DNA of 64,000 bases, taken from contig NZ_BDUB01000001.1 in NCBI RefSeq assembly GCF_002218065.1, positions 5,055,118 to 5,119,117 of the forward strand, read 5' to 3'. Shown here piece after piece: positions 3-18,495 of the stretch. The notes under the pieces are model-generated. The model saw only the letters and a list, made by a program, of their open reading frames with translations, was not told where the DNA came from and made no database searches. The translations under genes and the position numbers were made by a program. How positions within the stretch are numbered: the first letter of the stretch is position 1; the number at the start of each line of letters is the position of its first letter. The DNA is from Nodularia sp. NIES-3585 (GTDB taxonomy: Bacteria; Cyanobacteriota; Cyanobacteriia; Cyanobacteriales; Nostocaceae).

Positions 3-809
3 TTTTGGAGTCCAGCAATGATTCCCACAAAAGGTTTCATCCATGTTGATATTGACCCAGAAGTACCAGGAGTTGCTTATCCATCTGCTGAAACATTTGC
101 TATCCAATCTGATATTAAACTTTTTCTCCAAGCTCTACTCAAGCAGTTTCCAGAAAGAATCCATCATTTCTCACAGAGCAAATTGCCTCATCCTGAACGC
201 GGAGTTACTCAACTCAAGGCAGACAGCCCAGTACGCCCCGAATTACTATTGAATGCTATCCAACGGATCATCGTTGAAGGTAGCAAGGCATTGGTGATGG
301 CAGAGTCAGGTAACTGCTTGGCTTGGGGAAATCATCTCCTGCATTTTGACACACCTGGCCGCTATCGAGTTAGCACCGGATTTGGCTCTATGGGTCATTT
401 CGTTACAGGCGTTGTTGGTGCTGGATTGGTACACCATGATAAGGCCGTGGCTTTGGTTGGTGATGGTGCCATGCTGATGAACAGTGAAGTTAGCACCGCG
501 GTAAAACATCAGATTCCTGCCGTTTGGATTGTCCTCAACGATGGCGGATATAACATGTGCAAGCAAGGAATGGCATTGCTAGGCTTCAAAGACATAGATG
601 CAGATATACCGCAAGCAAATTTCGTCCAGATTGCTCGTGGTATGGGAGCCGACGGTATTCGTGTAGAACAAGAGTCCGACATTGAAGCAGCGTTAGAAAA
701 AGCAATGGCTTCACCCGTTCCTTTTGTGATTGATGTGATCATCGATGGCAAGCAACCTGCACCTATTGGGGGTCGTGTTAAAAGTTTAATGTCACAAGGC
801 GCTAAGTAA
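3..809 (+). CDS. Thiamine-diphosphate-dependent carboligase (acetolactate synthase-like), 5'-truncated by the window edge
   Basis: The frame stays open to base 3, upstream of the first ATG at 18, so only the C-terminal part of a larger protein is present. It covers the end of the central domain (DIDPEVPG) and the whole PP-type cofactor domain. The ThDP/Mg motif is visible as GDGAMLMN followed about 26 residues later by LND. The family comprises acetolactate synthases, 2-oxoacid decarboxylases and carboligases such as ScyA of scytonemin synthesis. The catalytic Glu lies outside the window, so the substrate cannot be judged. The next gene starts 18 bp downstream on the same strand, which suggests an operon with the ketosynthase-III-like gene. 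A housekeeping acetolactate synthase is less likely, because no small subunit or ilvC follows. Confidence 0.85.
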   Translation, partial: FWSPAMIPTKGFIHVDIDPEVPGVAYPSAETFAIQSDIKLFLQALLKQFPERIHHFSQSKLPHPERGVTQLKADSPVRPELLLNAIQRIIVEGSKALVMAESGNCLAWGNHLLHFDTPGRYRVSTGFGSMGHFVTGVVGAGLVHHDKAVALVGDGAMLMNSEVSTAVKHQIPAVWIVLNDGGYNMCKQGMALLGFKDIDADIPQANFVQIARGMGADGIRVEQESDIEAALEKAMASPVPFVIDVIIDGKQPAPIGGRVKSLMSQGAK

Positions 810-827
810 TAATTAGGAGATTAAGTC

Positions 828-1961
828 ATGATTTATCAACCAGTAGGTATTCGCTCAATTGCAGTTAGCTTTCCCAGCATCATTCGCACAAATGATTATT
901 ACCGAGAAAATTCTCCTGAATTGATTACTGGGGCTGAGAAAAAAACTTTATCTAGGGTATTCTCTACCACTGACTCTTCTAACATGAATGAGTTTGACTT
1001 GGAGATGTTACCTTATATGTCCGATCCTTTTCGCGGTACTGTGGAGCGCAGGGTATTTGCTCCTGACGAGACATCGCTATCAATATCCTATAAAGCCGCC
1101 AAGGATGCTTTAGATGCAGCAAAGCTTTCTCCCCAAGACATTGACTTAATGCTCGTTGCTACAATCTTCCCTGAGCAAATCGTACCTGGTAACGCAGCTT
1201 TTCTGGCTGGTGAACTGGGATTACAAGGAGCAGCTTGGAATCTTGATTCTACTTGCTCCAATGCTATGGTTGCACTTCAGACTGCTGCTGCCTTGGTGCG
1301 TGCAGGAGAGTATCAGAATGTATTAGTGGTTATTTGCACTAACTACTCTAAGTTTACTGATGAGAATGATACTTTGTCGTTTTTATCAGGTGATGGAGCT
1401 GGAGCCTTTGTAGTTAGTTCCCTCAAAGCAAATCAGGGTGTTCTGGGAACCAAGATTATCAACACTGCCTCGACCTGCGGGACTTTTTATAACGAGTTCA
1501 CCACCGACTCCCAAGGCAACCCACGGATGTTTATCCGGGCAGCTAAAGGCACAGGGAAAGTATTGAGTGACACGTCAATACAACTTGTCCGTGAGTGTTG
1601 CTCTGGGGCGCTAGAGGCAGCTGGTGTCACCTTGGATGACATTAATCTGTTTGCCTTTAATACACCTACAGCTTGGTATTCCAAGGTTTGCGCCCGTGTT
1701 TTAGGCATAGACCATCAGCGTACCATTGACCTCCACGAACGCTACGCCAATATTGGCCCCATGCTTCCCCTGGCTAATCTGTACCACGGTGCAGAATTAG
1801 GCAGAATTCGGGAAAATGATTTGGTGTTACTTTACACGATTGGTTCTGTATCTAATGCAGGTGCAAGTGTCATGCGTTGGGGCGATGTGGCAATAGGGCC
1901 TACTCCTGCTCCCCCAGTCAGCACTCAAGGACAAGAAGAAAAAATTCCTAGTCTTTGCTAG
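828..1961 (+). CDS. 3-oxoacyl-ACP synthase III-like (KAS III / FabH superfamily) enzyme, non-canonical active site
   Basis: A 377-residue thiolase-fold protein. The nucleophile is Cys143 in STCSNAM, and the C-terminal half aligns with FabH. At the position of FabH His244 (motif HQAN) this protein has Asn278 (FNTPTAW), while the second catalytic Asn is kept as Asn308 (YANIG). Loss of the His makes ordinary decarboxylative condensation doubtful. Acyl transfer or another thioester reaction is an alternative. The ATG at 828 is supported by AGGAGA at 815-820, and the 18-bp spacing to the carboligase indicates co-transcription. The C-terminal tail after about residue 355 (proline-rich, ending in Cys) is beyond the family core. 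The family is certain; the reaction is unknown. Confidence 0.85.
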   Translation: MIYQPVGIRSIAVSFPSIIRTNDYYRENSPELITGAEKKTLSRVFSTTDSSNMNEFDLEMLPYMSDPFRGTVERRVFAPDETSLSISYKAAKDALDAAKLSPQDIDLMLVATIFPEQIVPGNAAFLAGELGLQGAAWNLDSTCSNAMVALQTAAALVRAGEYQNVLVVICTNYSKFTDENDTLSFLSGDGAGAFVVSSLKANQGVLGTKIINTASTCGTFYNEFTTDSQGNPRMFIRAAKGTGKVLSDTSIQLVRECCSGALEAAGVTLDDINLFAFNTPTAWYSKVCARVLGIDHQRTIDLHERYANIGPMLPLANLYHGAELGRIRENDLVLLYTIGSVSNAGASVMRWGDVAIGPTPAPPVSTQGQEEKIPSLC

Positions 1962-1978
1962 TACTTAGGGATTTCCCA

Positions 1979-2036
1979 GGAATAAAATCCCCAATTTGTC
2001 GGGTGGGTGAGGACGATAGTCCGTAACCCACCACTA
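1979..2036. repeat. 58-bp dispersed repeat (copy 1) with GTGGGT/ACCCAC hairpin
   Basis: Nearly identical to 49261-49318. Both copies contain a short inverted repeat (GTGGGT ... ACCCAC) around the shared core GAGGACGATAGTCCGTA. The element lies just after the KAS-III-like stop codon and before aroH. It may act as a hairpin between the two genes, but only its repetition is directly visible. Confidence 0.6.
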
Positions 2037-2103
2037 TCCCTTCAATTTATGAAAATTTATCTGGTGGAATTTGAGTATCTTAAGTTATTTAGGAGAGTAT
2101 GAC

Positions 2104-2520
2104 ATGGAGTGGAAAGTGCGGGCAATTCGTGGAGCTACGACTGTTTCGGAAAACTCTGTAGTAGCGATTCGGGATGCAGTTCATGAGCTTTTAGATGTAT
2201 TGGAAGCAAATAATCAGTTAGATCCCGAAGAGATTGTTAGTGTAACTTTTTCTGCGACTCGTGATTTAGATGTAATTTTTCCGGCGGCGATCGCTAGAGA
2301 ACGTCCTGACTGGAACAATGTACCTTTACTAGATGTACAACAAATGTATGTCGAGGGTAGTTTGCCTCGTTGCATTCGGCTGTTGCTTCATTTGAATACA
2401 AAAAAACCCCAAAGTAAAATTTACCATACCTATTTACGCCAAGCCAAAAACTTAAGACCTGATTTGAGCTTATCCGCAATGCCTCTAGTCTCAACGCCAG
2501 TACTTCAATCATTGCGGTAA
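2104..2520 (+). CDS. aroH: Chorismate mutase, AroH type
   Basis: A 138-residue monofunctional chorismate mutase converting chorismate to prephenate, the entry to tyrosine and phenylalanine. The N-terminus VRAIRGATTV, the central FSATRDLD...FPAA stretch, RCIR and HTYL...LRPDLSL match Bacillus AroH. I chose the ATG at 2104 because AGGAGAG sits at 2091-2097; an upstream TTG at 2071 has no such site. At the position of Bacillus Glu78 (QEMDV) this protein has Gln (QQMYV), while the Arg90 and Tyr108 equivalents are kept. From memory, the Gln may be common in cyanobacterial AroH, so it is not proof of inactivity. It lies 143 bp behind the ketosynthase-like gene on the same strand and may supply aromatic precursors to it. 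Confidence 0.85.
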   Translation: MEWKVRAIRGATTVSENSVVAIRDAVHELLDVLEANNQLDPEEIVSVTFSATRDLDVIFPAAIARERPDWNNVPLLDVQQMYVEGSLPRCIRLLLHLNTKKPQSKIYHTYLRQAKNLRPDLSLSAMPLVSTPVLQSLR

Positions 2521-2762
2521 CACTTGCTCACCAAACGCTAAATTCTGATCAAGTTATCGATGGGAATAATTTTCAAGTAGCTCTGGAGGATGTTGATAAA
2601 GTGGCAATTTTAACATACATCTTGTACGAATTACTTAACAGCTTGGATCTATACCCAGATTTAACGATCTGCTTTGTGCCTACCATGCCGGAACGCCTCA
2701 CAGTTAATATGTCTACCCTACGGGTTCTGCCTTGCAGTATGCGTGAGCTTTTAAAATTATAG
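2463..2762 (+). pseudogene. Orphan open frame overlapping the aroH end, probable gene remnant
   Basis: A 99-codon open stretch without an ATG start runs from just after a TGA at 2460 to the TAG at 2760-2762. It overlaps the aroH 3' end in another frame. The part beyond aroH reads like real protein (DKVAILTYILYELLNS, then FVPTMPERLTVN). I do not recognise the family. The missing start suggests the 3' remnant of a gene broken by deletion, or a coupled reading frame using a rare start. Confidence 0.3.
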
Positions 2763-2993
2763 CGTTGCTGAATCAAAGTATGAAATGCCCAAATTACCTT
2801 TCTTTTTCTTCGTACCTTTGCGCCTTTGCGCCTAACGCACTTCGTGCTAAAGCTTACAGCACGCTACGCGAACGCTAGAGCCTCCGGCACACTTCGTGAA
2901 CGCTGATGCGTGAGACAGATCCATATTCTCAATCAGCAACGGCAAAATATTTGTGCAAGAACTTTAATCTAAAATCTTGAACTATATCAGCAA
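2763..2993. other. Non-coding spacer with dispersed GC-rich repeat fragments
   Basis: The stretch contains runs such as CTTTGCGCCTTTGCGCC and GCTACGCGAACGCTAGAGC. Similar runs recur around 7330-7390, 8290-8330 and 9280-9310. These are short palindromic repeat fragments of the kind common between Nostoc genes. I see no promoter I would defend for the tyrosinase downstream. Confidence 0.4.
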
Positions 2994-4319
2994 ATGAAGA
3001 TGACTAGACTTTTACGCAAAAGTTTTACAACAGTAGCTATTAGTATAACTACTGCACTAAGTATATTTAATACTCCAGCATTCGCTCATAATGGAGAACA
3101 TCACGAACAGCCTGATCCTGTTGAGCCTACTCCAGTCGAACCGATAGATGTCAATACTAAACTTGACATTAGAAAAAATGTTCTTGACCTTAATTCAGCA
3201 GAAAAGTCAGCATTTGTCGATGCTTTATACACGTTGAAAAATACTACTCTTGAAGGTAGTACTATCAGCATTTATGATCAATTTGTCGCCCAGCACGTAG
3301 CGTCAATGGGCATGATGATGATGGATGCAGTAGGCATAGGCGCTGGTCATGATGCTGCTCACCATCATGATGCATTTCTGCCTTGGCATCGTGAATACAT
3401 ACACCGATTTGAAAAAACCTTGCAATCAGTCAATCCCAACATAACTTTGCCCTATTGGGATTGGACAGATCCTGAAGCGATTGATTTTATATTTCAGCCT
3501 GACTTTTTAGGAACAAATGGCTCAGGCGTAATACTTCCTACACCTGGAGGTGGAACCTTTGAAGGAGGCCCAATTCAGACGGGTAATTTCTCAGAAGCTA
3601 GTGGATGGGTTTTAAACCCAAATTTGCATATTGATCCAATTACAAAACAAACATCTCAAGGCACTTCACTGATTCGCTTTCTCAAACTACCGCCTATAGA
3701 TCAATATCCCATCCCTCAAGCTGCTGTAAATCAACTCTTGGCTCACGATAACTATTCCGATTTTCGCCTCGACTTAGAAGGCTTTGCTTTCGATCAGCTG
3801 GGAAATCCCGTATTCACCAACCATAACTATATTCATGGATTAGTTGGTGGAGCAGGCTTTGATTTTAGCACAAACCCCCCAACTCCAGTTCCCATAGGAA
3901 CTATGAGTGGCGTTTTGAGTTCTCCCTATGATCCAGTATTCTGGTTGCTTCATACCAATGTGGATCGTCTTTGGGCAGAATGGCAAGACAATGGGCATTC
4001 AGGTAGTGCTTTTTACCCTGCATCGGGTCAACCCTATGGACACAACCTGAATGATCGTATGTGGCCTTGGGATGGGGGACAGACAACTCCAGGGATGATC
4101 GGACCTGGAGATGTAGTATCTTTGTTACCACTATTTTCATCTGATGATCTTGTCACACCTAAAGACACTCTGAATTTTCGTAAATATGGCTACACCTATG
4201 ATACCCTCGTTTCTTCGGTTCCAGAACCAACTTGTCTATGGGGTGTATTAGCTTTAGGTATTTTGGGTACAGCTGTTCCAGGGAAACAGAAACGATTAGG
4301 GAGCAACGGGAAAATCTGA
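2994..4319 (+). CDS. Secreted tyrosinase (type-3 copper phenol oxidase) with PEP-CTERM-like C-terminus
   Basis: A 441-residue binuclear copper oxidase of the tyrosinase/polyphenol oxidase family, which hydroxylates or oxidises phenols to quinones. Candidate CuA ligands are His101, the His123-125 cluster and His132 (FLPWHREY). CuB ligands are His277 and His281 (NHNYIHG) and His320 (DPVFWLLH). A signal peptide ends near residue 31 (PAFA/HNG). The C-terminus has VPEPTCLWG, a hydrophobic stretch and basic residues, which resembles a PEP-CTERM sorting signal and implies export and surface processing. No strong ribosome site precedes the ATG at 2994; an ATG at 3000 is also possible. The gene lies downstream of the carboligase, KAS-III-like and aroH genes and may act on their phenolic product. 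The family is certain; the substrate is inferred. Confidence 0.92.
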   Translation: MKMTRLLRKSFTTVAISITTALSIFNTPAFAHNGEHHEQPDPVEPTPVEPIDVNTKLDIRKNVLDLNSAEKSAFVDALYTLKNTTLEGSTISIYDQFVAQHVASMGMMMMDAVGIGAGHDAAHHHDAFLPWHREYIHRFEKTLQSVNPNITLPYWDWTDPEAIDFIFQPDFLGTNGSGVILPTPGGGTFEGGPIQTGNFSEASGWVLNPNLHIDPITKQTSQGTSLIRFLKLPPIDQYPIPQAAVNQLLAHDNYSDFRLDLEGFAFDQLGNPVFTNHNYIHGLVGGAGFDFSTNPPTPVPIGTMSGVLSSPYDPVFWLLHTNVDRLWAEWQDNGHSGSAFYPASGQPYGHNLNDRMWPWDGGQTTPGMIGPGDVVSLLPLFSSDDLVTPKDTLNFRKYGYTYDTLVSSVPEPTCLWGVLALGILGTAVPGKQKRLGSNGKI

Positions 4320-4505
4320 GGTCTCAAATCCGGGTCGTAGATAGCCTATTTCAGGATGCGATCGCTACGCCCCCAGGCCTCGCCACTAAAATATGTGGTT
4401 TTGTTGATGATTGAGCTATGTAATTAATCATTAAAAACCAATCTCACAAAATTACTTTGGTCTCAAAGGATTATTACATACTCTGTATATAGGCTTTCTT
4501 GAATA

Positions 4506-5447
4506 ATGGCTTTAAAAAACTTTTTAACGGGTTCTCTGTGGTCAGCATTGAGCGTATTCTTCATAGTTGATGCAGTTCAAGCAGCAACTATATATGGACA
4601 AGCCAAGTCACTCGGTGATGGATATATACGTTCTTTTGTCGAAGTTTCTCAAGATGGCCAACCTTTAGAAATTGGCGTAGCTTTGAATAAAGGTGCATTG
4701 TCTTTACCTACTGGTAATTACCCTGTAATTCAAACTCAGCTAGACATACCGTCTGAGGCTGGGGCCACGCCATTCCAACAAATTCAAGTAGATTACAGTC
4801 CAGGTTCAGCACCAGGATTTCCAGAGGTCTTTGCCGTACCCCGTTTCAGACTGGATTTTTTCCTAATTGATTCTCAAGAACGTGCTTTAATCTGCCCAAA
4901 TCCCGACACAACTGGTCCAATACCGCTCTGTGTCGGTGATGAAGCATTGCAGGCACTGAAGACCCCTGTAACTGGTGCTGTCCCTGATGGCTTTTTCCCG
5001 GATGGTATTGCAGAACCAAACTATGGAGCGCGTTTTTCTGACCCTGAATTAGCTCTGCCGATATTACTAGGGGAGAAACAATTCACCGATGCCTATGGCT
5101 ATGGCTATTTTGATGGTAAACTCACATTTATCACCGCAGCTGCTACAAAAGCTTTTGTAGAATCACAAGCAACTGTTCAGACACCTTTAAAAACGCCTGT
5201 TTTTTATCCCAAGGATGGATACTATCCCACCACCTATGGCGTTTCTTATGATGCGACTACAGAAGAATACAGAATAGGACTTGGTACATTAGTATTTCGC
5301 TCCTCTAATGCTCAACCTGTACCGGAACTTTCTTCTATATGGGGTTTATTAACAATTGCTGCTTGGGGTGTAGTTTTTCACATGAGAAAGCAGCAGCAAA
5401 AAACAGTGATGAGTAACAAAATCATCGAAGATAGGATTAATTCGTAG
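4506..5447 (+). CDS. Secreted PEP-CTERM-like protein of unknown function
   Basis: A 313-residue protein with an N-terminal signal peptide (hydrophobic residues about 9-26, ending VQAA). The mature domain has no recognised enzymatic motif, and two Cys flank a short loop near residue 130. The C-terminus carries VPELSSIWG, a hydrophobic helix and then MRKQQQK. This looks like a variant PEP-CTERM signal (PEL in place of PEP), with about 14 extra residues after the basic patch. It follows the tyrosinase by 186 bp on the same strand and shares its sorting-signal design. A common surface location is likely, and a partner or cargo role is possible. Confidence 0.65.
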   Translation: MALKNFLTGSLWSALSVFFIVDAVQAATIYGQAKSLGDGYIRSFVEVSQDGQPLEIGVALNKGALSLPTGNYPVIQTQLDIPSEAGATPFQQIQVDYSPGSAPGFPEVFAVPRFRLDFFLIDSQERALICPNPDTTGPIPLCVGDEALQALKTPVTGAVPDGFFPDGIAEPNYGARFSDPELALPILLGEKQFTDAYGYGYFDGKLTFITAAATKAFVESQATVQTPLKTPVFYPKDGYYPTTYGVSYDATTEEYRIGLGTLVFRSSNAQPVPELSSIWGLLTIAAWGVVFHMRKQQQKTVMSNKIIEDRINS

Positions 5448-5457
5448 TAAGGATCAT

Positions 5458-5690
5458 TTGCCTAAAATATCAAATGTTCACTCACTTGACACTCCCCAAG
5501 ATAAATCGACGCGGATTCTTGGTTCAACGAAACCACTTAACCTAGACTCCTTGCGTCATCTAAACCAGAGGTGGGATTCTCCCCAAGCGTTAATTCGGGT
5601 ATGCCCTACCCTATTTGCATTAGTGCAAGTCCTGTTTGGTTTGAAACAAATTGTTTCAAAATGCTGATTCGTCTAGCCCCCATAAATCTT
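5458..5690 (-). pseudogene. Remnant of tnpB (IS200/IS605 or IS607 family) 3' end
   Basis: Read on the minus strand, one frame gives NRVGHTRINAWGE followed by a stop. This resembles the C-terminal tail of cyanobacterial TnpB proteins. After frame changes come pieces such as FVEPRIR and LSWGVSSE, again tail-like. Several stops and frameshifts show decay, and no tnpA or tnpB body is present. The sequence beyond the stop would correspond to the guide-RNA/right-end region of such an element. TnpB is an RNA-guided nuclease encoded by these insertion sequences. Confidence 0.55.
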
Positions 5691-5872
5691 TTACCTACTG
5701 CTAGGAGGAAACTAGAATAATGCAGTAGAACCGCATAGATTCAATTATCAAGGTATGGCTAACGCCAAGCTAGCGCTAACAGGCTTTGTCTTTCGACAGC
5801 TAGGTTTTTTAAGTGGTTGATTACCTTTCCACTACTATTAGTATAGCAGCACCTTAGGACATTAATGAATTA

Positions 5873-5899
5873 AAAGCCGTCGTTCTACGACGGGGCTTT
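5873..5899. repeat. Strong hairpin, possible insertion-sequence end
   Basis: A stem formed by AAAGCC-GTCGT and ACGAC-GGGGCTTT encloses a 3-4 nt loop. Hairpins of this form (CCGTCGT/ACGACGG) are frequent at IS200/IS605-type ends in cyanobacteria. It lies about 200 bp from the tnpB remnant and may mark the other side of the same dead element. A factor-independent terminator is the alternative. Confidence 0.4.
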
Positions 5900-6096
5900 A
5901 AACCCAATCTTTCGGTAAAGCTACCTTCGCCATTTATTTGGAGCCAATAAATTGCCCCGCACCTAAGTTTTTCAACGCGTCTTAGGCTATACAAGGGTTT
6001 TAGCCTCCAAATTAGATGATTTAGAGGCGCGCCAGCTTAAATCATCCCGATAACTAAAAAGTTATGAACTTTAACATTTCTTGAGGAGACTATTCA
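5900..6096. other. Spacer before the SDR gene
   Basis: No gene is visible. The spacer ends with TTGAGGAGA at about 6082-6090, a good ribosome binding site for the ATG at 6097. The rest may still belong to the decayed mobile element. Confidence 0.4.
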
Positions 6097-6726
6097 ATGA
6101 AGCTGATAATTTTTGGAGCTACAGGTAGTACGGGTCAGTGTCTCGTGGAACAAGCACTAAATCAGGGTTATGAGGTAACAGCGTTTGTTCGTAATCCTTC
6201 AGTAATCAAAACTCAACATCGTCATCTTTCAGTTGTCAAAGGAGATGTAATTAATCAGGAACAGGTAGAGATAGCCATGGCAGGAAAGGAAGCTGTACTA
6301 TCTGCTTTAGGTGTCAAAATTGGCACTCCACCCGGAACTATCCGTTCTGAAGGCACAAAAAATATTATTACTGCGATGAAAAAATTTAATATCAAGCGTT
6401 TCATTTGCGTGACATCAGTAGGAGTTGGTGATAGTAAACCACGTTCAGGCTTTTTGGGAAATGTGTTGTTTCCACTTTTTTTTAAAGAACGCTTCGCTGA
6501 TGTAGAAAAGCAAGAACAATTAATTCAACAAAGTGGACTTGACTGGACTATCATTCGTCCTAGTCGTCTAACTGACGGACCTAAAACTGGTTCTTACAAA
6601 TCTGGTTTGCTACTATCTGTAGGATTCAGATCAACTATTTCACGAGCAGATGTTGCTGCATTTATGCTTCGGCAATTAACCGATAACACATATTTGCACA
6701 AAGCTCCAGTAGCTACTTACGTTTGA
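6097..6726 (+). CDS. NAD(P)-binding atypical short-chain dehydrogenase (NmrA / BVR-B-like)
   Basis: A 209-residue Rossmann-fold protein. The nucleotide-binding motif GATGSTG is at residues 8-14, followed by the atypical-SDR pattern of VKGDV, a central CVTSVGVG and WTIIRPSRLTDGP. Relatives include flavin/biliverdin-IX-beta reductases and NmrA-like redox sensors. The catalytic YxxxK of classical SDRs is absent, as usual in this subgroup. AGGAGA precedes the ATG. It stands alone between repeat-rich spacers, so context does not reveal the substrate. Confidence 0.8.
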   Translation: MKLIIFGATGSTGQCLVEQALNQGYEVTAFVRNPSVIKTQHRHLSVVKGDVINQEQVEIAMAGKEAVLSALGVKIGTPPGTIRSEGTKNIITAMKKFNIKRFICVTSVGVGDSKPRSGFLGNVLFPLFFKERFADVEKQEQLIQQSGLDWTIIRPSRLTDGPKTGSYKSGLLLSVGFRSTISRADVAAFMLRQLTDNTYLHKAPVATYV

Positions 6727-7504: not shown

Positions 7505-8242
7505 ATGTCAATTACTCCTACCACCTCGCTGCGAGAACAACAACATCCCTTAATTCGTCAACTAGCTGATACCATTGAAGCGGTTTGGCATGAACACTTA
7601 GAACTATCGCCTTACCATTTACCTTCTGAACTAGGGTATGTAGAAGGCAGACTCGAAGGAGAGAAACTAATCATAGAAAATCGCTGCTATCAAACACCCC
7701 AATTTCGTAAAATGCACTTAGAACTAGCAAAAGTGGGGAATATGTTGGACATTTTGCATTGTGTGATGTTTCCTCGTCCAGAATATGACATCCCCATGTT
7801 TGGTTGTGACTTAGTTGGAGGTAGAGGTCAAATTAGTGCGGCGATCGCAGACCTATCTCCTGTAGACTTAAATCGTACCTTACCAGAATCATATAATACC
7901 AAACTAACAGCACTCAAAGAGATCAAGTTTTCCCAACCCCGTGATTTACCAGAATGGGGTCATATATTCTCAAACTTTTGCATCTTTGTGCGTCCTGGTT
8001 CCCCAGAAGAAGAGACAATGTTTCTTTTCCGTGTCAAAGAATTTTTAGATATTCATTGTACCCAAGCGATCGCTTCGAGTCCAGTTTCACCAGAAAAATC
8101 GCTGCAAATTCTAGCTGGACAACGCAACTACTGTACCCAACAGCAACAAAACGACAAAACCCGCCGAGTACTAGAAAAAGCCTTTGGTCAAGACTGGGCA
8201 GAAAATTACATGACCACAGTATTATTTGATCTCCCAGAATAA
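7505..8242 (+). CDS. pcyA: Phycocyanobilin:ferredoxin oxidoreductase
   Basis: A 245-residue ferredoxin-dependent bilin reductase. It carries out the four-electron reduction of biliverdin IX-alpha to phycocyanobilin, the chromophore of phycobiliproteins and phytochromes. The whole protein matches the PcyA family in length. His85 (DILHCVMFP) and Asp102 (FGCDLVGG) align with His88 and Asp105 of the Synechocystis enzyme, which hold and protonate the substrate. The start at 7505 gives the usual N-terminus. It appears monocistronic, with long non-coding spacers on both sides. Confidence 0.95.
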
Positions 8243-9400: not shown

Positions 9401-10840
9401 ATGTCAAGGGTGACTGAGAAACCAAGCTCAAAAGAGCTGGTACTTGATCCGGAACAACCTAAGGTTTGGTGGGGTATCGCTGTAGCCCTACCAATTGTCA
9501 TCGCCGCTGGACTACTAACTACTGCTAAAGTTGAGCAACTGAAGAAAATAGGCTTATCTGTACCTGTCAAACCAGTTGCCAATAGCATTAGTTCTGTGGG
9601 GCGTTTGGAACCAAAAGGGGAAGTGTTGAGACTTTCGGCTCCCGCAGCTGGGTTGCAATCTTCTTCACGAATTCAGCAACTTTTCGTGAGTGAAGGTGAG
9701 CGAGTTAGAAAAGGTCAAGTGGTAGCGATTTTAGACAACCATGATACCCAACTAGCAGCTCTAGAAGAAGCAAAAGCCAGACTGCAAGAAGCACGAGCGA
9801 ATTTAGCTCAAGTCAGAGTCGCTTCACCTAGAGATATTGAAGCACAAACCGCAGTCATTGCTCGCTTACAAGCCCAGTTAAATGGAGAAAGGGATGCTCA
9901 ACAAGCGGCAATTGGGCGGATAGCTGCCCAGTTAAGTGGAGAAAAAGTTGCTCAACAAGCAGGTGTTGAACGTTTAGAGGCTGAACTCAGAGGACAACAA
10001 GAAAACTTAAGAGCAACTGTTGCCCGCATCCAAGCCGAACAGCGTGATGCTCAAGTTGATGCTGGACGATATGATTATTTATACGGTGAAGGTGCTATTT
10101 CCCAGCAAGAACGGGATAGCAGAAGACTCAGAGCGCAAACTGCTAATCAGCAAGTTCGAGAAACCCAAGCTAGCCTGCGAAAGGCGCAGGAGACTATACG
10201 ACAACAACTAGCCGAGGCTAGAGCTACTCAGGTACAAACTATTGCCACTTTGCAACAACAGCTAGTTGAAGCTAGAGTGACTCGTGATCAAACTATCAGG
10301 ACTTTGCAAAGTCAAATTAACGAAGAACAAGCGAGATTGAGCCGAATTCAAGACTTTCGTCCGACTGATATTCAGAGGGGACAAGCTCAAGTTAGTAATG
10401 CGATCGCTAATGTTAAAAGGGCAGAAGCCGAACTAAAATTAAGCTACGTTCAAGCGCCAATTGCTGGAGAAATTTTAGCAGTTCACACCAAATCAGGAGA
10501 ATCTATCAGTGCAAATGGCATTGCTGAGATTGGAGAAACCAATCAAATGACCGTTGTGGCTGAAGTTCCTGAAGATACTATTTCTGAAGTGCGTGTAGGT
10601 CAAACTGCGACTATCACTAGTGAAAATGGAGCCTTTACTGGGGAATTACAAGGAACTGTCACTCAAATTGGTAGAAAAATTGGCAAAAAAGATGTTTTAA
10701 CTACAGATCCAGTAGCCGATGTAGACGCTAGAGTTGTGGAAGTTAAAATCACCTTAAGTCCAGAAGATAGTCAACGAGTTTCCGGTTTCACCAATGCTAA
10801 GGTAATTGCCCAAATTAATAAACAATCAAATTCTGATTGA
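9401..10840 (+). CDS. devB: DevB-type membrane fusion protein of an ABC exporter
   Basis: A 479-residue HlyD/MFP-family periplasmic adaptor. One N-terminal membrane helix lies at about residues 23-42. It is followed by a lipoyl-like half domain (SVGRLEPKG), a long Gln/Ala/Arg-rich coiled coil (about 115-345), the second lipoyl half (VQAPIAGEIL) and a beta-barrel region. DevB links the DevAC ABC transporter to TolC, exporting glycolipids for the heterocyst envelope. devC and devA follow on the same strand. Nostocales carry several devBCA paralogues, so orthology to the founding operon is inferred from length, order and the NtcA promoter. Confidence 0.88.
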   Translation: MSRVTEKPSSKELVLDPEQPKVWWGIAVALPIVIAAGLLTTAKVEQLKKIGLSVPVKPVANSISSVGRLEPKGEVLRLSAPAAGLQSSSRIQQLFVSEGERVRKGQVVAILDNHDTQLAALEEAKARLQEARANLAQVRVASPRDIEAQTAVIARLQAQLNGERDAQQAAIGRIAAQLSGEKVAQQAGVERLEAELRGQQENLRATVARIQAEQRDAQVDAGRYDYLYGEGAISQQERDSRRLRAQTANQQVRETQASLRKAQETIRQQLAEARATQVQTIATLQQQLVEARVTRDQTIRTLQSQINEEQARLSRIQDFRPTDIQRGQAQVSNAIANVKRAEAELKLSYVQAPIAGEILAVHTKSGESISANGIAEIGETNQMTVVAEVPEDTISEVRVGQTATITSENGAFTGELQGTVTQIGRKIGKKDVLTTDPVADVDARVVEVKITLSPEDSQRVSGFTNAKVIAQINKQSNSD

Positions 10841-10955
10841 GCATTAATACCAATTGAAAAAAGAATTTGACTAAAACCAAATTTTAGATTTTGGATGAAA
10901 TGTTCCCATCCAAAATTTAAAGTTAAATCGCTTTCTTAATTACGAATTACCAATA

Positions 10956-12110
10956 ATGACTCGTAAAATACCCCTGTCCTGGCTACAACTAACAAGAGAC
11001 AAAAGTCGCCTAGCCGTGGCTTTGGCAGGAATTGCTTTTGCTGATATTCTCATGTTTATGCAAATTGGTTTCCGGGATGCACTCTATTATAGTAACGTTC
11101 GGTTACATGGTAGCTTACAAGGTGACATCGTTTTAATTAATCAACAATCTAATGCCTTGCTAGCAATGCAAACCTTTTCTCAAAGAAGGTTGTATCAAGC
11201 TTTAGAATTAGAAGCAGTAGATTCGGTACATCCGATATATTTAGATTATACAACGTGGAAAAATCCCGTAACAGGTCGTCCTCGGAGTATTCTGATTTTT
11301 GGCATGAATCCAGAAACTAATATATTTGATTTGCCGGGTGTTCAGGATAATTTGGATAAATTGAAACTCCCTGATGTGGTTTTATTTGACCGTTCCTCTA
11401 GAGAAGAATATGGACCAATTGCTGCTGAGGTGGACAGAGGGAATACTGTAACTGCCGAAGTACAAAGAAGACGAGTTAAAATAGATGGACTCTTTACTTT
11501 AGGTGCATCTTTTGGAGCAGATGGTAATTTAATCACCAGTGATGTTAATTTTTTGAGGATATTCGCCAACCGTCAACGAGGTTTAATTGATATTGGTCTA
11601 ATTAGATTAAAACCCGGACAAAATGCTAATATTGTTGCCCAACAGTTGCGGTTATATTTACCTCAAGATATGAATGTTTTAACAAAACAAGAGTTTATTG
11701 ATTTTGAGCGCAATTACTGGGCAAGCAGTACAGCTATTGGATTTATCTTCACTTTAGGAACAATCATGGGTTTCATTGTTGGTACTGTGATTGTTTATCA
11801 AATTCTTTATACAGAAGTTTCTGATCACTTATCAGAGTATGCTACTTTGAAGGCAATAGGTTACACACAAAAGTATTTATTGACTGTTATACTCCAAGAA
11901 GCATTGCTATTAGCTTGCTTAGGATATATTCCTGGATGGATTGTTGCTATGTTTATGTACTCCAGTGCTAGAGATGCTACACTGCTACCAATTTTCATGA
12001 GTTACGAACGGGCAATAACTGTGTTAATTTTAACTATAATTATGTGTTTTGTTTCGGGCGCGATCGCAGTACGTAAATTACGTTCCGCCGATCCAGCAGA
12101 TATCTTCTAG
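10956..12110 (+). CDS. devC: DevC-type ABC exporter permease
   Basis: A 384-residue MacB/FtsX-type permease. Helices lie at about 19-37, 250-280, 305-335 and 350-372, with a large extracytoplasmic loop between the first two. The C-terminal conserved segment (TLKAIGYTQKYLL, then AVRKLRSADPADIF) is typical of DevC. It forms the membrane part of the heterocyst glycolipid exporter with devA and devB. It is 115 bp behind devB and 277 bp ahead of devA, all on the same strand. Confidence 0.9.
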   Translation: MTRKIPLSWLQLTRDKSRLAVALAGIAFADILMFMQIGFRDALYYSNVRLHGSLQGDIVLINQQSNALLAMQTFSQRRLYQALELEAVDSVHPIYLDYTTWKNPVTGRPRSILIFGMNPETNIFDLPGVQDNLDKLKLPDVVLFDRSSREEYGPIAAEVDRGNTVTAEVQRRRVKIDGLFTLGASFGADGNLITSDVNFLRIFANRQRGLIDIGLIRLKPGQNANIVAQQLRLYLPQDMNVLTKQEFIDFERNYWASSTAIGFIFTLGTIMGFIVGTVIVYQILYTEVSDHLSEYATLKAIGYTQKYLLTVILQEALLLACLGYIPGWIVAMFMYSSARDATLLPIFMSYERAITVLILTIIMCFVSGAIAVRKLRSADPADIF

Positions 12111-12387
12111 ATTCTACAAGTAAATCTGGGGCTTGTACTATTAAGGCACTATTGGTAATCCCTGACAAATTAAATCCGAGTTTTAAATGTTGATGGAGAG
12201 GTGGGATTTATAATTTATGAGTGACATATATTGATTCTTGACAGGTACTACTACAGCACTGCGTAAATAGGGATACCATTTCAACAACTTCAAAGTCCCA
12301 AAATAACAGCTTTTTGACTTTGGTTCGCCCAGGGTAACGAGGTTCTATTTTGACTAGCGCCCTGCAAGACGAAACTACAAACACCTA

Positions 12388-13116
12388 ATGAACCACATAA
12401 ATATGAAACAAGAACCTGTAATTGCCATAAAAAATCTCAACCATTACTATGGCAAAGGCGCACTGAAAAAACAAATCTTATTTGATATTAATCTAGAAGT
12501 TTATCCAGGGGAAATTGTGATTATGACTGGTCCATCAGGTTCAGGTAAAACAACATTACTCAGCTTGATTGGTGGGTTGCGGTCTGTACAAGAGGGAAGT
12601 TTAAAATTTTTAGGTGTAGAAATGTTTGGCGCTAGTCAGAATAGATTAGTGCAAATTCGGCGTAATATTGGTTATATTTTTCAAGCTCACAATTTGCTGG
12701 GTTTCTTAAGTGCCACACAAAATGTGCAGATGGCCGTAGAATTAAACAACAATATGAGTGCAAATGAAGCAATTGCTAAATCACAAGCCATGCTGGGGGC
12801 AGTTGGTTTACAAGACAAAGTTACTTATTTCCCAGAAAGCCTTTCAGGTGGACAAAAACAAAGAATCGCGATCGCCCGCGCCCTAGTTAATAGCCCTCCA
12901 CTGGTACTAGCAGATGAACCAACGGCAGCTTTGGACAAACAATCAGGACGCGATGTCGTGGAAATTATGCAGGGCCTTGCTAAAGAACAAGGAACGTCTA
13001 TCTTGCTAGTGACTCACGATAACCGCATTTTGGACATAGCCGATCGCATCGTCGAAATGGAAGATGGTCTGTTAACCCGTGATTCCCAAAGTGTAGTTCG
13101 CCATGAAGAACCATAA
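12388..13116 (+). CDS. devA: DevA-type ABC exporter ATPase
   Basis: A 242-residue ABC ATPase of the MacB/LolD type. Walker A is GPSGSGKTT, the signature is LSGGQKQR and Walker B is LVLADEPTAALD; the switch His is in LVTHD. It powers DevC. The start at 12388 (MNHINMK) or at the internal Met 15 bp later are both possible. The 277-bp spacer from devC is long for this operon. It holds no gene but may contain its own promoter or a repeat. Confidence 0.92.
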   Translation: MNHINMKQEPVIAIKNLNHYYGKGALKKQILFDINLEVYPGEIVIMTGPSGSGKTTLLSLIGGLRSVQEGSLKFLGVEMFGASQNRLVQIRRNIGYIFQAHNLLGFLSATQNVQMAVELNNNMSANEAIAKSQAMLGAVGLQDKVTYFPESLSGGQKQRIAIARALVNSPPLVLADEPTAALDKQSGRDVVEIMQGLAKEQGTSILLVTHDNRILDIADRIVEMEDGLLTRDSQSVVRHEEP

Positions 13117-14094: not shown

Positions 14095-14913
14095 ATGTAC
14101 AGTGAGCAAAACTTTCCGGCTGGACATCCACTAACTCTCAAACAACTCTGTGAGGCTTCATTCCGGAATATTCGTCTAATTGCTACAGATATGGATGGTA
14201 CGCTGACTACAAGCGGCAAATTTTCAGCTACATTGCTGCAAGCCTTAGAAGATTTAGCAGCTGCTGGGATTAAAGTATTAATTGTCACTGGACGTTCCGC
14301 TGGGTGGATGAGTGGATTGAGTAACTTGATGCCTGTTGTTGGTGCGATCGCTGAAAACGGTGGTCTATTCTATCCATCAGGACATGATCAACCAGTAACT
14401 TTAACACCAATTCCTGACTTAGAAGCCCATCGTCAGAGTTTAAGTGTAGCTTTTGCCGAATTAAAACACAAATTTCCCCAAATTCAAGAATCAGCCGACA
14501 ATCGTTTTCGTGTCACCGATTGGACATTTAATGTCGCAGCTTTGAGTCCAAGGGAGTTACAAACACTAAGTCATCTTTGTCAACAAATGGGTTGGGGATT
14601 TACTTATAGTAATGTGCAGTGTCATATTAAGCCCCAAGGGCAAGATAAGGCTGTAGGATTATTGCAAGTGTTGCGAGAATACTTGCCGGAATTTTCACCA
14701 GCGCAAGTGCTTACCGTTGGTGATAGCCCCAATGATGAGAGTTTATTTAATCAACGTCATTTTTCTGTGTCTGTAGGTGTAGCAAATGTCCTGAAATATG
14801 CAAATCAGTTGCAACATCAACCTACTTATATGACTACAGCTGCTGAAGGCGAAGGATTTTGTGAGTTATGCAATTATATTCTGCACAGCGGGGAAATAAA
14901 GCCAAAAATTTAA
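14095..14913 (+). CDS. HAD-superfamily phosphatase (Cof/sucrose-phosphatase-like)
   Basis: A 272-residue HAD hydrolase. Motif I is DMDGTL (nucleophile Asp32, acid/base Asp34), motif II TGR near residue 64 and motif IV GDSPNDESLF near 210. The C2-type cap lies between motifs II and III. Such enzymes dephosphorylate sugar phosphates or similar metabolites; the substrate is not evident. The start at 14095 leaves about 25 residues before motif I. It is transcribed away from the preceding membrane protein gene. Confidence 0.82.
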   Translation: MYSEQNFPAGHPLTLKQLCEASFRNIRLIATDMDGTLTTSGKFSATLLQALEDLAAAGIKVLIVTGRSAGWMSGLSNLMPVVGAIAENGGLFYPSGHDQPVTLTPIPDLEAHRQSLSVAFAELKHKFPQIQESADNRFRVTDWTFNVAALSPRELQTLSHLCQQMGWGFTYSNVQCHIKPQGQDKAVGLLQVLREYLPEFSPAQVLTVGDSPNDESLFNQRHFSVSVGVANVLKYANQLQHQPTYMTTAAEGEGFCELCNYILHSGEIKPKI

Positions 14914-14916
14914 TTC

Positions 14917-15012
14917 TCATAGTCCCCATGCTTCAGGAGTGGTGAATTTTTCCGGTTTCGGTGTAGGAATCCATGTCTGCCCTTTCCTGAAGCGTTGGTT
15001 TGCGGCATTCAT
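14917..15012 (-). CDS. Possible 31-residue small protein
   Basis: A minus-strand frame from the ATG at 15012 to the TGA at 14917 encodes a hydrophilic, Pro/Thr/Lys-rich peptide beginning MNAANQRFRKGQTW and ending EAWGL. The composition is protein-like, and the frame ends 3 bp from the stop codon of the convergent HAD gene. No clear ribosome site is seen. It could be a real small protein, the tail of a lost gene, or chance. Confidence 0.28.
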   Translation of the reverse strand: MNAANQRFRKGQTWIPTPKPEKFTTPEAWGL

Positions 15013-15578
15013 GCTCTTTTACACAGAAACTTACTTAAATTTGAATAATGTTTTAAATTTTAATTAAGTTTATAATAATTAACAGTAGTCTGAAGAAAGA
15101 TGTGAATAATGTTTAGTTGCCAGAAAGGACGAATTGGGAGTAGGTTAGTAAAAGTGTTAGATTAGTCCGATTTTTGGGAACTATATATCTAAGAGTCTCA
15201 TCACTCAAGTAGGTCGTATCATATCTTGCACCTAATGATTAAAATTCTGGTTACCCGAACAAAACCTGTCCACCCAGGTTACGAAACCCTTGATTTCTGG
15301 TAGTCCGTACCTGCGGACTTTGTTTGCTTAACCAAGTTTGTGCAATGAGTAACTCCAATCTTCTCCCCAGGGGAGAGGCTAGCGCCAAGGAGATTTCCTC
15401 CAGGAGTATCTATCTGTAAGTTCTACCTGAATGGATTGAGGGGATTTCCCCTTGAAGCAACAGGCATAGGACTTCCAGTCGTTTGAGCTTGGTGCAATAT
15501 GTGAGTAATGCCTAAATAGTTAGGCAATATCTGTAATGTTGATTATTCCTAAAATCTAATCTAGATTAAAAGTTATTT
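15013..15578. other. Spacer upstream of the adenylate cyclase gene
   Basis: AT-rich at first (15030-15080), then mixed, with repeat-like pieces at about 15260-15310 and 15360-15400. No gene is visible. A promoter for the cyclase is expected here but I cannot single one out. Confidence 0.35.
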
Positions 15579-18170
15579 ATGTCAGTCCATGAAAGTAGTT
15601 TTGGGGAGAAGGCAGATTTAATTATTGGTATTAGCAACCAAGAAAATCACTATTTGCAACCAAATTCTACTCCTGTAGGTAATTTGGCTAGAAGAAAAGG
15701 AACCATTTCGAGCTTTCTTGCTCCCTTGACTCAGGACACTTTTAAACAAGTTGTTACAGACGTTGAGCAAAAATTGCAGATTGTGCATCAAACCCTATCA
15801 ATGTTAGATTCTCAAGGGTTTGAAACGATTCTCCAAGAAATGTTGCATTCGATTACCTTCAAAACAGGAGAGTTACTAGGAGCAGACAGGACAACAATAT
15901 TCTTATTAGATGAAGATAAACAAGAACTTTGGTCAACTTTAGCTGAGGGGGAAAGAGAAGGAGTAGCTTCTCTAGAGATTCGGATTCCAGCAGATAAAGG
16001 GATTGCAGGCGAAGTCGCTACGTTCAAGAAAGTTATAAATATTCCTTTCGATTTTTATCAAGATCCGCGTTCTGTATTTGCTCAAGAACAAGAAAAAAGA
16101 ACCGGCTATCGTACTTATACAATGCTAGCGTTGCCACTATTGAATGAAGATGGAAAATTAGTGGCCGTGGTGCAATTGCTCAATAAATTAAAATCGTCAA
16201 ATAATGCCAATGATCCGCTCTGTGAGCGGGTGGATACTGAAGGTTTTAGCAAGGCTGACGAACAATTATTTCAAGAATTTGCTCCTTCAATTCGATTGAT
16301 TTTAGAGTCGTCGCGTTCGTTTTATATGGCGACTCAAAAACAAAGAGCCTTAGCGGCGTTGATGAAAGCGATCAAGTCTCTGAGTCAAAGCAGTCTTGAC
16401 TTAGAAGATACCCTGAACCGGGTGATGGAAGAGGCGAAGGAACTGATGAATGCTGATCGCAGTACTCTATGGCTGATAGATCGCGATCGCCATGAATTAT
16501 GGACTAAGATTACCCAGGATGATGGTTCTACTAGGGAGTTACGAGTACCAATAGGTAAAGGTTTTGCGGGTATCGTCGCTGCATCTGGACAAAAGCTGAA
16601 TATTCCCTTTGACTTATATGAGGATGCTGACTCAGCTACCGCTAAACAAATGGATCAGCAAAATGGCTATCGTACCTGTAGTTTACTGTGTATGCCAGTA
16701 TTTAACGCTGATCAGGAATTGATTGGGGTGACTCAATTAGTCAATAAAAAGAAATCAGGGGATTTTCCGCCATACAATCCGGCTATTTGGCCCAAAGCGC
16801 CTGAATGCTTCCAAGCTAGCTTTGACCGCAACGATGAAGAGTTTATGGAAGCTTTTAATATTCAAGCGGGTGTGGCGCTGCAAAATGCTCAGTTGTTCGC
16901 CACCGTCAAGCAACAAGAACAAATGCAACGGGATATTTTGCGTAGTCTTTCCAACGGTGTGATTTCTACAGATAAAACCGGGATAATTATCACTGCTAAT
17001 GAAAGTGCCAAACACTTATTAGGATTAGAACCCGAAGACCGTTTAGAAGGCCAATTAATTACTGAAGCGATCGCAATTAAAGAAGGTGACTTTATTAAGT
17101 GGTATCAAGATGCTTTACAAACCAATGATTTAAATGTTTCACAGCAATATTACCCTGATCAGACACTCGTGAGTGGTGGAGTAGAACTGCACAGTATTAA
17201 TTTGTCCATCAACACCATTGCTGATGCTACTGATCAAGAGCAAGTGCGGGGGGCGCTGGTGGTGATGGAAGATATCAGTGATGAAAAGCGCCTCAAGAGT
17301 ACTATGTACCGCTATATGACTCAGGAATTAGCCGAAGAATTGCTGAAATTGGATGATGCTAAACTAGGAGGCGATCGCAAAGAAGTTTCAATTTTATTTT
17401 CCGATATTCGCGGTTACACCACTTTGACAGAAAATTTGGAAGCTGAAGAAGTGGTGAATATGCTCAACGACTATTTTGAATCAATGGTAGAAGCGGTATT
17501 TAAGCATAAAGGCACTCTGGATAAATATATCGGAGATGCCATCATGGCTGTATTTGGTTCCCCTCTACCTTTGGAAAACCACGCCTGGATGGCTGTGCAA
17601 ACATCCGTAGAAATGCGCCATCGCTTGCTGGAATTTAATCAACGTCGCCATGCTGCTGGTAAGCCCAGAATTAAAATTGGCATTGGTATCAATTCGGATA
17701 CTGTGATTAGTGGCAATATCGGCTCTAGTAAACGGATGGAATTTACTGCAATTGGTGATGGCGTTAATCTTGGTTCCCGATTAGAAAGCATTACTAAACA
17801 GTACGGTTGTGACATTATTCTCAGTGATAATACCTTCAAACCTTGCCAAGACTCTATTTGGGCGAGAGAATTAGACTACATTCGCGTTAAAGGCAGAAAT
17901 GAGCCAGTAGCTATATACGAATTGGTAGGTTTGCGTTCCGATCCCGTTAGTAGCGAACAATTACAACTAATTGAGTACTATCATAAAGGACGTGAGTATT
18001 ACCTCAATCGCCAATTTACCTATGCCAGAGCCGAGTTTGCCAAAGTTTTGGGAGTTGACAACCAAGATAAAGCCGCTATGTTGCATCTCTTACGTTGTCA
18101 GCACTGGTTGCAATCACCACCAACAGACTTTGAATGGGATCAGGGCGTTTGGACTTTTCAAGAGAAATAA
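15579..18170 (+). CDS. cyaB1: Class III adenylate cyclase, GAF-GAF-PAS-catalytic (CyaB1 type)
   Basis: An 863-residue soluble cyclase making cAMP from ATP. Two GAF domains (about 70-230 and 255-450) are followed by a PAS domain (about 455-570) and the cyclase domain (about 595-770), with a helical C-terminal tail. Metal ligands are seen in FSDIRGYT and YIGDAIM. The purine-specifying residues are Lys649 and Thr723. They match the Lys/Thr pair of Anabaena CyaB1, as I recall it, and indicate ATP rather than GTP. The transition-state Asn and Arg are in GVNLGSRLE. In CyaB1 the GAF tandem binds cAMP and activates the enzyme. Length and domain order agree closely with that protein. Confidence 0.92.
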   Translation: MSVHESSFGEKADLIIGISNQENHYLQPNSTPVGNLARRKGTISSFLAPLTQDTFKQVVTDVEQKLQIVHQTLSMLDSQGFETILQEMLHSITFKTGELLGADRTTIFLLDEDKQELWSTLAEGEREGVASLEIRIPADKGIAGEVATFKKVINIPFDFYQDPRSVFAQEQEKRTGYRTYTMLALPLLNEDGKLVAVVQLLNKLKSSNNANDPLCERVDTEGFSKADEQLFQEFAPSIRLILESSRSFYMATQKQRALAALMKAIKSLSQSSLDLEDTLNRVMEEAKELMNADRSTLWLIDRDRHELWTKITQDDGSTRELRVPIGKGFAGIVAASGQKLNIPFDLYEDADSATAKQMDQQNGYRTCSLLCMPVFNADQELIGVTQLVNKKKSGDFPPYNPAIWPKAPECFQASFDRNDEEFMEAFNIQAGVALQNAQLFATVKQQEQMQRDILRSLSNGVISTDKTGIIITANESAKHLLGLEPEDRLEGQLITEAIAIKEGDFIKWYQDALQTNDLNVSQQYYPDQTLVSGGVELHSINLSINTIADATDQEQVRGALVVMEDISDEKRLKSTMYRYMTQELAEELLKLDDAKLGGDRKEVSILFSDIRGYTTLTENLEAEEVVNMLNDYFESMVEAVFKHKGTLDKYIGDAIMAVFGSPLPLENHAWMAVQTSVEMRHRLLEFNQRRHAAGKPRIKIGIGINSDTVISGNIGSSKRMEFTAIGDGVNLGSRLESITKQYGCDIILSDNTFKPCQDSIWARELDYIRVKGRNEPVAIYELVGLRSDPVSSEQLQLIEYYHKGREYYLNRQFTYARAEFAKVLGVDNQDKAAMLHLLRCQHWLQSPPTDFEWDQGVWTFQEK

Positions 18171-18495
18171 CCACAAAAAAATAGCCCTCACAGAATTTAT
18201 CACTCCTGCGGACACACCTAAACAAACCTGAAATTTTGCGTTCTTTTGTTGGTGTACTTGGCACGCCAGCCTTTCCTACAAGTCAGATAACCAGCGCAGC
18301 TCACTGGCTCGTCTTGGCGGTGTGCGCTATGCGAACTGTTATTTTCAAATTTCTATAAATATTCACTATAACTCCTTCACTCTTTAATTGATTCCATCTT
18401 TAGTTGAATAGTAAATTCCACGTATTAGTTTACGATATGGAGCAAAAGTTGAATGCTTATCTTTTTTACTTGAAATAGAAGAGTGAATATTTACA
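18171..18495. other. Spacer between cyaB1 and the outer-membrane protein gene
   Basis: 325 bp without a gene. The middle part (18255-18335) is a GC-rich repeat fragment and the rest is AT-rich. No terminator with a clear U tract was found after cyaB1. Confidence 0.3.

What the first reader, a model, noticed from the sequence alone, without database searches (positions are those of the whole stretch)
3..5447. Possible uncharacterised aromatic secondary-metabolite locus
Four same-strand genes encode a ThDP carboligase, a KAS-III-like enzyme, a chorismate mutase and an exported tyrosinase; a secreted PEP-CTERM-like protein follows. The logic resembles scytonemin synthesis (ThDP coupling of aromatic 2-oxoacids, dedicated aromatic precursor gene, tyrosinase), but no scyB/scyC-type gene is visible and the KAS-III-like enzyme is an addition. 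The upstream part is cut off by the window.
Basis: partly seen in the sequence, partly recalled or inferred. Interest (0 to 1): 0.7.

Follow-up and report, generated by a model that had tools for sequence, protein, structure and literature searches.

The report
Known maculalactone (furanolide) gene cluster
The window begins inside a gene cluster for maculalactone-type butenolides that has already been cloned and expressed from this same cyanobacterial strain, so the locus is not new; what its exported tyrosinase does is still open.

Summary
The genes are real and correctly placed, but the locus is not uncharacterised. The assembly holding the window matches Nodularia sp. NIES-3585 in total size, scaffold count and largest scaffold. 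Just upstream of the cut lie a DAHP synthase, an aromatic ammonia-lyase and an acyl-CoA ligase. Together with the ThDP carboligase, KAS-III-like enzyme, chorismate mutase and tyrosinase they match the maculalactone (mac) furanolide cluster cloned from NIES-3585 and expressed in E. coli (PMC13288894). Scytonemin is only distant kin: MacE passes the 'ScyA-related' model and fails the ScyA model.

Refinements from this work: (1) MacF and its relatives lack the KAS-III catalytic His (0 of 30 distinct homologues). (2) MacK and the next gene read as exported, with PEP-CTERM-like tails just under cut-off, which fits poorly with the published 'tyrosine hydroxylation' role. (3) orf4 is the genome's only bilin reductase and keeps its neighbours in three Nodularia genomes where mac was not found, so it is probably not a mac gene. 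(4) MacF's sister group is the KAS-III-like protein of salicylate-type NRPS/PKS clusters.

The parts
3..809 (+). macE, ThDP carboligase (C-terminal part; the gene begins 1003 bases before the window)
   Evidence: NF035927 ScyA-related 1003.9 bits, cut-off 1000; homologous to BbmA and CsmA of the PDB
828..1961 (+). macF, KAS-III-like furanolide synthase; Cys143 and Asn308 kept, KAS-III His replaced by Asn278
   Evidence: AlphaFold2 model of KAS-III fold
2071..2520 (+). macM, AroH-type chorismate mutase (likelier start ATG 2104); a second copy lies elsewhere in the genome
   Evidence: paralogue G000:C1:3379422-3379714, aligned
2994..4319 (+). macK, tyrosinase with signal peptide (by eye) and sub-threshold PEP-CTERM-like tail; the only tyrosinase matched in the genome
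4506..5447 (+). Secreted TTHB210-like protein with PEP-CTERM-like tail; probably orf2 of the published cluster (inference)
   Evidence: relatives beside macF in 3 of 23 ThDP-paired loci
6097..6726 (+). NAD(P)H-binding protein, taken to be orf3 (NADH-flavin reductase) of the published cluster; found near macF in 0 of 53 named loci
7505..8242 (+). Ferredoxin-dependent bilin reductase (orf4 of the published cluster); sole copy in the genome and part of a block kept in three Nodularia genomes, so probably not a mac gene

Best explanation
The locus is the maculalactone (mac) furanolide cluster of Nodularia sp. NIES-3585. MacA and MacM raise aromatic precursor supply. MacB deaminates Phe (or Tyr) to cinnamate (or coumarate) and MacC makes the CoA ester. 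MacE condenses two 2-oxoacids into an acyloin-type acid. MacF O-acylates it with the aryl-acryloyl group, closes the ring by a Morita-Baylis-Hillman-type step, and a 1,4-hydride shift gives the gamma-benzylidene butenolide. Shown in print: products in E. coli from macBCEF, and the enzyme chemistry for the homologous CybE and CybF. Shown here: match of the assembly to the strain, gene content, synteny, MacF fold prediction and active-site residues. Inferred: MacF works through Cys143 without a catalytic His; MacK acts outside the cytoplasm.
For: Assembly totals equal those printed for NIES-3585: 4 scaffolds, 5,773,538 bp, largest 5,482,519 bp. Gene inventory and the 15.5 kb span from DUF7005 to the bilin reductase match the published cluster. 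B, C, E and F lie together in 11 of 23 ThDP-paired loci of named genomes (several of the other 12 are cut by contig ends). Published expression of mac and macBCEF gave maculalactone B, maculalactone N and deoxyenhygrolide A.
Against: The deposited cluster sequence (BK070015) was not compared base by base. The paper found no maculalactones in extracts of NIES-3585 itself and no difference between full mac and macBCEF in E. coli, so the native product and the roles of macA, macM and macK are unproven. The paper's figure and supplement with the gene order were not seen.
Confidence: 0.96

Rival explanations
1. A scytonemin or scytonemin-variant cluster: ThDP coupling of aromatic 2-oxoacids, then tyrosinase-driven oxidative coupling to a sheath pigment.
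For: MacE is ScyA kin (946.6 bits to the ScyA model), and an exported tyrosinase follows.
Against: MacE is below the ScyA cut-off of 1020 and above the ScyA-related cut-off. No open reading frame that I annotated between DUF7005 and the bilin reductase resembles a ScyB or ScyC protein. The genome has no closer ScyA-like gene. PMC7150779 reports that of the clusters it analysed, which include scy, only mys was found in NIES-3585 (passage). The published products are butenolides.
Confidence: 0.02
2. MacK and the TTHB210-like protein are not functional parts of the furanolide pathway but neighbours carried along.
For: Among 23 ThDP-paired loci only L046 has the tyrosinase directly behind the core on the same strand; in L048 it is on the other strand about 5 kb past macF. 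Repeated elements lie between macF, macM, macK and the next genes. Full mac and macBCEF gave no observed difference in E. coli.
Against: Cylindrospermum FACHB-282 keeps F, M, K, a Coq4-like gene and two TTHB210-like genes in that order on one strand, and TTHB210-like genes also lie near macF in L052 and L054.
Confidence: 0.35
3. MacK hydroxylates tyrosine inside the cell as a precursor step, as predicted in PMC13288894.
For: Stated as a prediction in the paper; it is a tyrosinase by Pfam and solved-structure matches.
Against: The protein begins with what I read as a cleavable signal peptide and ends with a sorting-like tail, as does the Cylindrospermum copy; the terms 'signal peptide', 'secreted' and 'PEP-CTERM' have 0 occurrences in the paper's main text.
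Confidence: 0.1

Closest known systems
mac (maculalactone) cluster of Nodularia sp. NIES-3585 (PMC13288894; accession BK070015)
   Same: Same strain, same enzyme inventory, same span of about 15.5 kb
   Different: Nothing found to differ, but not compared base by base; I would take orf4 out of the functional cluster
cyanobacterin (cyb) cluster of Tolypothrix sp. PCC 9009 and nostoclide (ncl) clusters
   Same: Core lyase, CoA ligase, ThDP enzyme and furanolide synthase, as described in the papers
   Different: cyb has a flavin-dependent halogenase (passage); none of the proteins annotated here from DUF7005 to the bilin reductase is one
Scytonemin ScyA
   Same: ThDP carboligase kinship; 946.6 bits to the ScyA model
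   Different: Below the ScyA cut-off; other partner genes and product
FatG-type KAS-III-like protein of salicylate metallophore clusters (fatuamide, PMC11877528)
   Same: Same KAS subfamily with Cys and Asn kept and His lost; an aryl thioester is a plausible substrate (inference)
   Different: C-terminal ACP domain (shown for L067), no ThDP enzyme beside it, salicylate synthase-like and NRPS/PKS genes instead

Membership tests
Furanolide (cyb/ncl/mac) cluster | Ammonia-lyase, CoA ligase, CybE-type ThDP enzyme and CybF-type synthase together | tested here: met
   collinear in relatives
Furanolide (cyb/ncl/mac) cluster | Makes a gamma-butyrolactone (furanolide) core | not testable with these tools
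   Published for this strain's genes in E. coli
The published mac cluster itself | Same strain and same DNA as BK070015 | tested here: inconclusive
   Strain matched by assembly totals; BK070015 not available to compare
Scytonemin cluster | ScyA over the NCBIfam equivalog cut-off | tested here: not met
   946.6 bits against 1020
Scytonemin cluster | scyB and scyC in the cluster | tested here: not met
   None among the proteins annotated from DUF7005 to the bilin reductase; the rest of the genome was not searched for them by me
Acetolactate synthase | Over an acetolactate synthase model cut-off | tested here: not met
   198 bits against 538.35
KAS III (FabH) | Cys-His-Asn triad | tested here: not met
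   Cys143 and Asn308 kept, His replaced by Asn278
KAS III (FabH) | Thiolase-type KAS-III fold | tested here: met
   AlphaFold2 model pLDDT 87.7, best Foldseek matches FabH and PqsBC
PEP-CTERM proteins (MacK and the TTHB210-like protein) | Over the PEP-CTERM cut-off | tested here: not met
   14.3 and 15.4 bits against 16
PEP-CTERM proteins (MacK and the TTHB210-like protein) | Exosortase in the same genome | tested here: met
   2 matches over the cut-off

The most novel reading that the evidence does not exclude
The mac cluster feeds a cell-surface step: phenolic furanolides (maculalactone N was the main product in E. coli) leave the cytoplasm and are oxidised by the exported tyrosinase MacK, with the TTHB210-like protein as partner or scaffold. 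The end product in the native strain would be a bound catechol or quinone polymer or cross-link, which would explain why no maculalactones were found in extracts of NIES-3585.
Probability: 0.2. Interest if true: 0.45.

Novelty: already known. Interest (0 to 1): 0.2.

Why it matters
The locus is published, so this is mainly a check and a refinement. The comparison suggests trimming the published cluster (the bilin reductase looks like core genome; orf3 is not conserved beside macF), questions the predicted role of the tyrosinase, and links furanolide synthases to a KAS-III-like protein without an assigned step in a cyanobacterial salicylate metallophore cluster, through a shared loss of the KAS-III histidine.

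Tried and rejected
Scytonemin variant: rejected on the ScyA cut-off, gene content and published products.

Plain acetolactate synthase: rejected.

16S comparison with related genomes: my query was cut at a wrong offset, so the result was not used; the strain was identified from assembly totals instead.

Rfam: 0 matches at gathering score over the window and 0 with E up to 1 at 5400-6100.

Is the His loss already in print? 'triad' has 0 occurrences in the main texts of PMC12395478, PMC8777810 and PMC13288894. The original CybF paper did not appear in my listings, so I cannot tell. 'tyrosinase' with 'cyanobacteri' and 'PEP-CTERM' gave 0 papers.

Limits of the counts. The 53 named loci were found with patterns that include FNTPTAWY, so their unanimity at residue 278 (54 of 54 with MacF) is partly circular. 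One search does not depend on that pattern, but it covers only the best-scoring matches plus one weaker one, not all listed matches; its 49 rows hold 30 distinct genes, since 19 of the 20 longer regions repeat genes of the first 29 loci. One search drew 388 genomes from a larger order. Unnamed and named sets overlap in some genomes. One search cut frames at 430 residues and one search used the first 380. In one search only 40 of 171 candidates were scored, so repeat counts are lower bounds.

I rewrote the fields and corrected the upstream length of macE (1003, not 1002), the E-value range, and the wording on which papers were searched for 'triad'. Odds in this version were set afresh for the rivals; the novel case is unchanged at 0.2.

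Full report
Observation. Pfam and NCBIfam confirm the four enzymes. The last protein has only a TTHB210-like match just under its cut-off.

Where it is. The window is bases 5055118-5119117 of contig C1 of a 5,773,538-base, 4-contig genome; C1 is 5,482,519 bases. Table 2 of PMC7150779 (passage seen) gives these totals for Nodularia sp. NIES-3585: 4 scaffolds, 5,773,538 bp, largest 5,482,519 bp. I take the window to be from that strain.

What the window cut off. Upstream on the same strand lie a DUF7005 protein (L009:12823-13989), a DAHP synthase (14316-15410), an aromatic amino-acid lyase (15587-17410), an acyl-CoA ligase (17438-19051) and the first 1003 bases of the carboligase gene. Before them is a CRISPR array of 22 repeats with cas-like genes (judged by eye, not scanned).

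What it is. [quoted passage not shown] Here DUF7005 to the end of the bilin reductase (window 8242) spans 15,538 bases. That orf1 is DUF7005 and orf2 the TTHB210-like gene is my inference; I did not see the figure or supplement. In E. coli, mac and macBCEF made maculalactone B, the new maculalactone N and deoxyenhygrolide A, with no difference seen between the constructs. No maculalactones were found in the strain itself.

Mechanism. As given in PMC13288894 and PMC12395478 (passages), the lyase and ligase make the aryl-acryloyl-CoA, CybE makes the acyloin acid from two 2-oxoacids, and CybF does O-acylation, a Morita-Baylis-Hillman-type closure and a 1,4-hydride shift. MacE scores 1003.9 bits to the ScyA-related model (cut-off 1000), 946.6 to ScyA (cut-off 1020) and 198 to acetolactate synthase (cut-off 538.35). 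Its best solved-structure matches are BbmA, with CsmA fourth; the passage names CsmA and BpmA as CybE homologues, and I take BbmA and BpmA to be the same protein.

Synteny. MacF as query gave 53 loci in named genomes. In 23 of 53 a MacE relative lies beside the MacF relative, at 31-33% identity in three of them (L088, L090, L098). Of these 23, 11 hold B, C, E and F in the stretch held and 8 also hold the DAHP synthase; several of the rest are cut by contig ends. A chorismate mutase follows in 4 of 23. The tyrosinase follows directly on the same strand in 1 of 23 (L046, Cylindrospermum sp. FACHB-282, MacF 85% identical) and lies on the other strand in one more (L048). TTHB210-like genes are near in 3 of 23. 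DUF7005, orf3 and the bilin reductase were matched in 0 of 53 (at most 10 kb of flank a side). In the sample of 388 genomes of the order, 74 have a MacF relative at E up to 1e-40. Of the two other congeners in that sample, one has no match and the other only a 46% match in a 515-residue frame.

Boundary. The bilin reductase is the only one matched in the genome. In three Nodularia genomes (G295, G278, and G388, which holds L075) it lies in one collinear block with the downstream genes up to window 13200, at 86-92% identity over the main pieces and 73-83% over one spacer; no listed match covers orf3 (the list is cut at weak matches). MacF orthologues were not found in G295 or G278, and the MacF relative in G388 is of the salicylate type (L075). 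So orf4 looks like core genome, and the cluster probably ends before it. The macA stretch finds only 72-75% paralogues in those genomes.

MacF active site. In the two FabH alignments printed, the FabH histidine of the HQAN motif (motif recalled) aligns with Asn278, while Cys143 and Asn308 keep their places. In 30 distinct homologues (49 rows) residue 278 is Asn in 27, Tyr in 2, Thr in 1 and His in 0; Cys143 and Asn308 are kept in all 30. In the named set residue 278 is Asn in 54 of 54 with MacF (partly circular, see Tried and rejected). An AlphaFold2 model (pLDDT 87.7, pTM 0.89) matches FabH, PqsBC and PqsD structures best; I could not measure distances in it. I read the site as kept for acyl transfer through cysteine and not for decarboxylative condensation (inference).

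Sister family. In the other 30 of 53 loci no MacE relative was matched. 25 of 30 have a salicylate synthase-like gene and 28 of 30 an NRPS gene in the stretch held. In 29 of 30 the MacF-like frame runs to the 430-residue limit; two myxobacterial ThDP-paired ones (L088, L090) do so too. A C-terminal ACP domain was shown for L067 only, whose neighbours are a salicylate synthase (329.0 bits, cut-off 325.15), a benzoate-CoA ligase family protein (514.5, cut-off 375.25) and two phosphopantetheinyl transferases. This is the layout of the fatuamide cluster, whose FatG is tabled as KAS III with no step assigned in the passages I saw. In a quick tree the 30 form one side of a branch (SH-aLRT 100) and, with midpoint rooting, lie inside the cyanobacterial furanolide synthases.

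Tyrosinase. MacK is the only tyrosinase matched in the genome. In the PDB search the top rows are multi-domain hemocyanins, followed by single-domain bacterial-type tyrosinases covering residues 55-360. It starts with what I read as a signal peptide and ends in VPEP, a hydrophobic stretch and a basic tail; NCBIfam PEP-CTERM gives 14.3 bits against 16. The L046 copy has a similar tail (15.8 against 16), while the L048 and L106 homologues lack it. Two exosortases are in the genome. An exported enzyme fits poorly with hydroxylation of cytosolic tyrosine and suggests action on an exported product; this is untested.

Repeats. An element of about 85 bp lies between macF and macM, another of up to about 190 bp between macM and macK, and one of about 435 bp behind the TTHB210-like gene. 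In Cylindrospermum the gaps are 27 bp (F to M) and 169 bp (M to K), against 109 bp and 473 bp here, so repeats have probably widened the operon here.

Verdict. A known cluster of this very strain, with refinements on its limits, its synthase active site and its tyrosinase.

Noticed in passing
L067:5677-16844 and 29 other loci (for example L075, Nodularia sp. LCM1.Bin15): MacF-like proteins without a ThDP partner, in salicylate synthase/NRPS/PKS clusters like fatuamide's; His-less KAS site, ACP domain shown for L067. Possibly an acyl shuttle that loads salicylate on its own ACP.
   Followed up: partly
window 1965-2051: About 85-bp repeat between macF and macM, matched at 30 further places in the genome (lower bound; 40 of 171 candidates scored).
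   Followed up: partly
window 2751-2941: Repeat between macM and macK with imperfect inverted ends, matched at 8 further places, one on contig C4.
   Followed up: partly
window 5486-5919: About 435-bp repeat without an ORF of 80 aa or more, 5 further near-full-length copies in the genome at 85-96% and at least 12 in the congener G278. Its end recalls IS200/IS605-type ends (recalled, not tested).
   Followed up: partly
L009:11124-12732 (upstream of the window): CRISPR array of 22 repeats of about 37 bp, beside cas-like genes, just upstream of the mac cluster.
   Followed up: no
window 9401-13116: HlyD-like membrane-fusion protein, ABC permease and a third ORF (DevBCA-like by eye), kept together with the bilin reductase in three Nodularia genomes.
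   Followed up: partly
L046:13151-13864: A Coq4-family protein (PF05019, 71.2 bits) lies between the tyrosinase and the TTHB210-like genes in the Cylindrospermum cluster; possible tailoring enzyme.
   Followed up: no
L052:14597-15697 and L054:11389-12459: Related cupin-domain proteins (48% identical) with a signal-peptide-like start lie near macF in these two Nostoc clusters, close to TTHB210-like genes.
   Followed up: no
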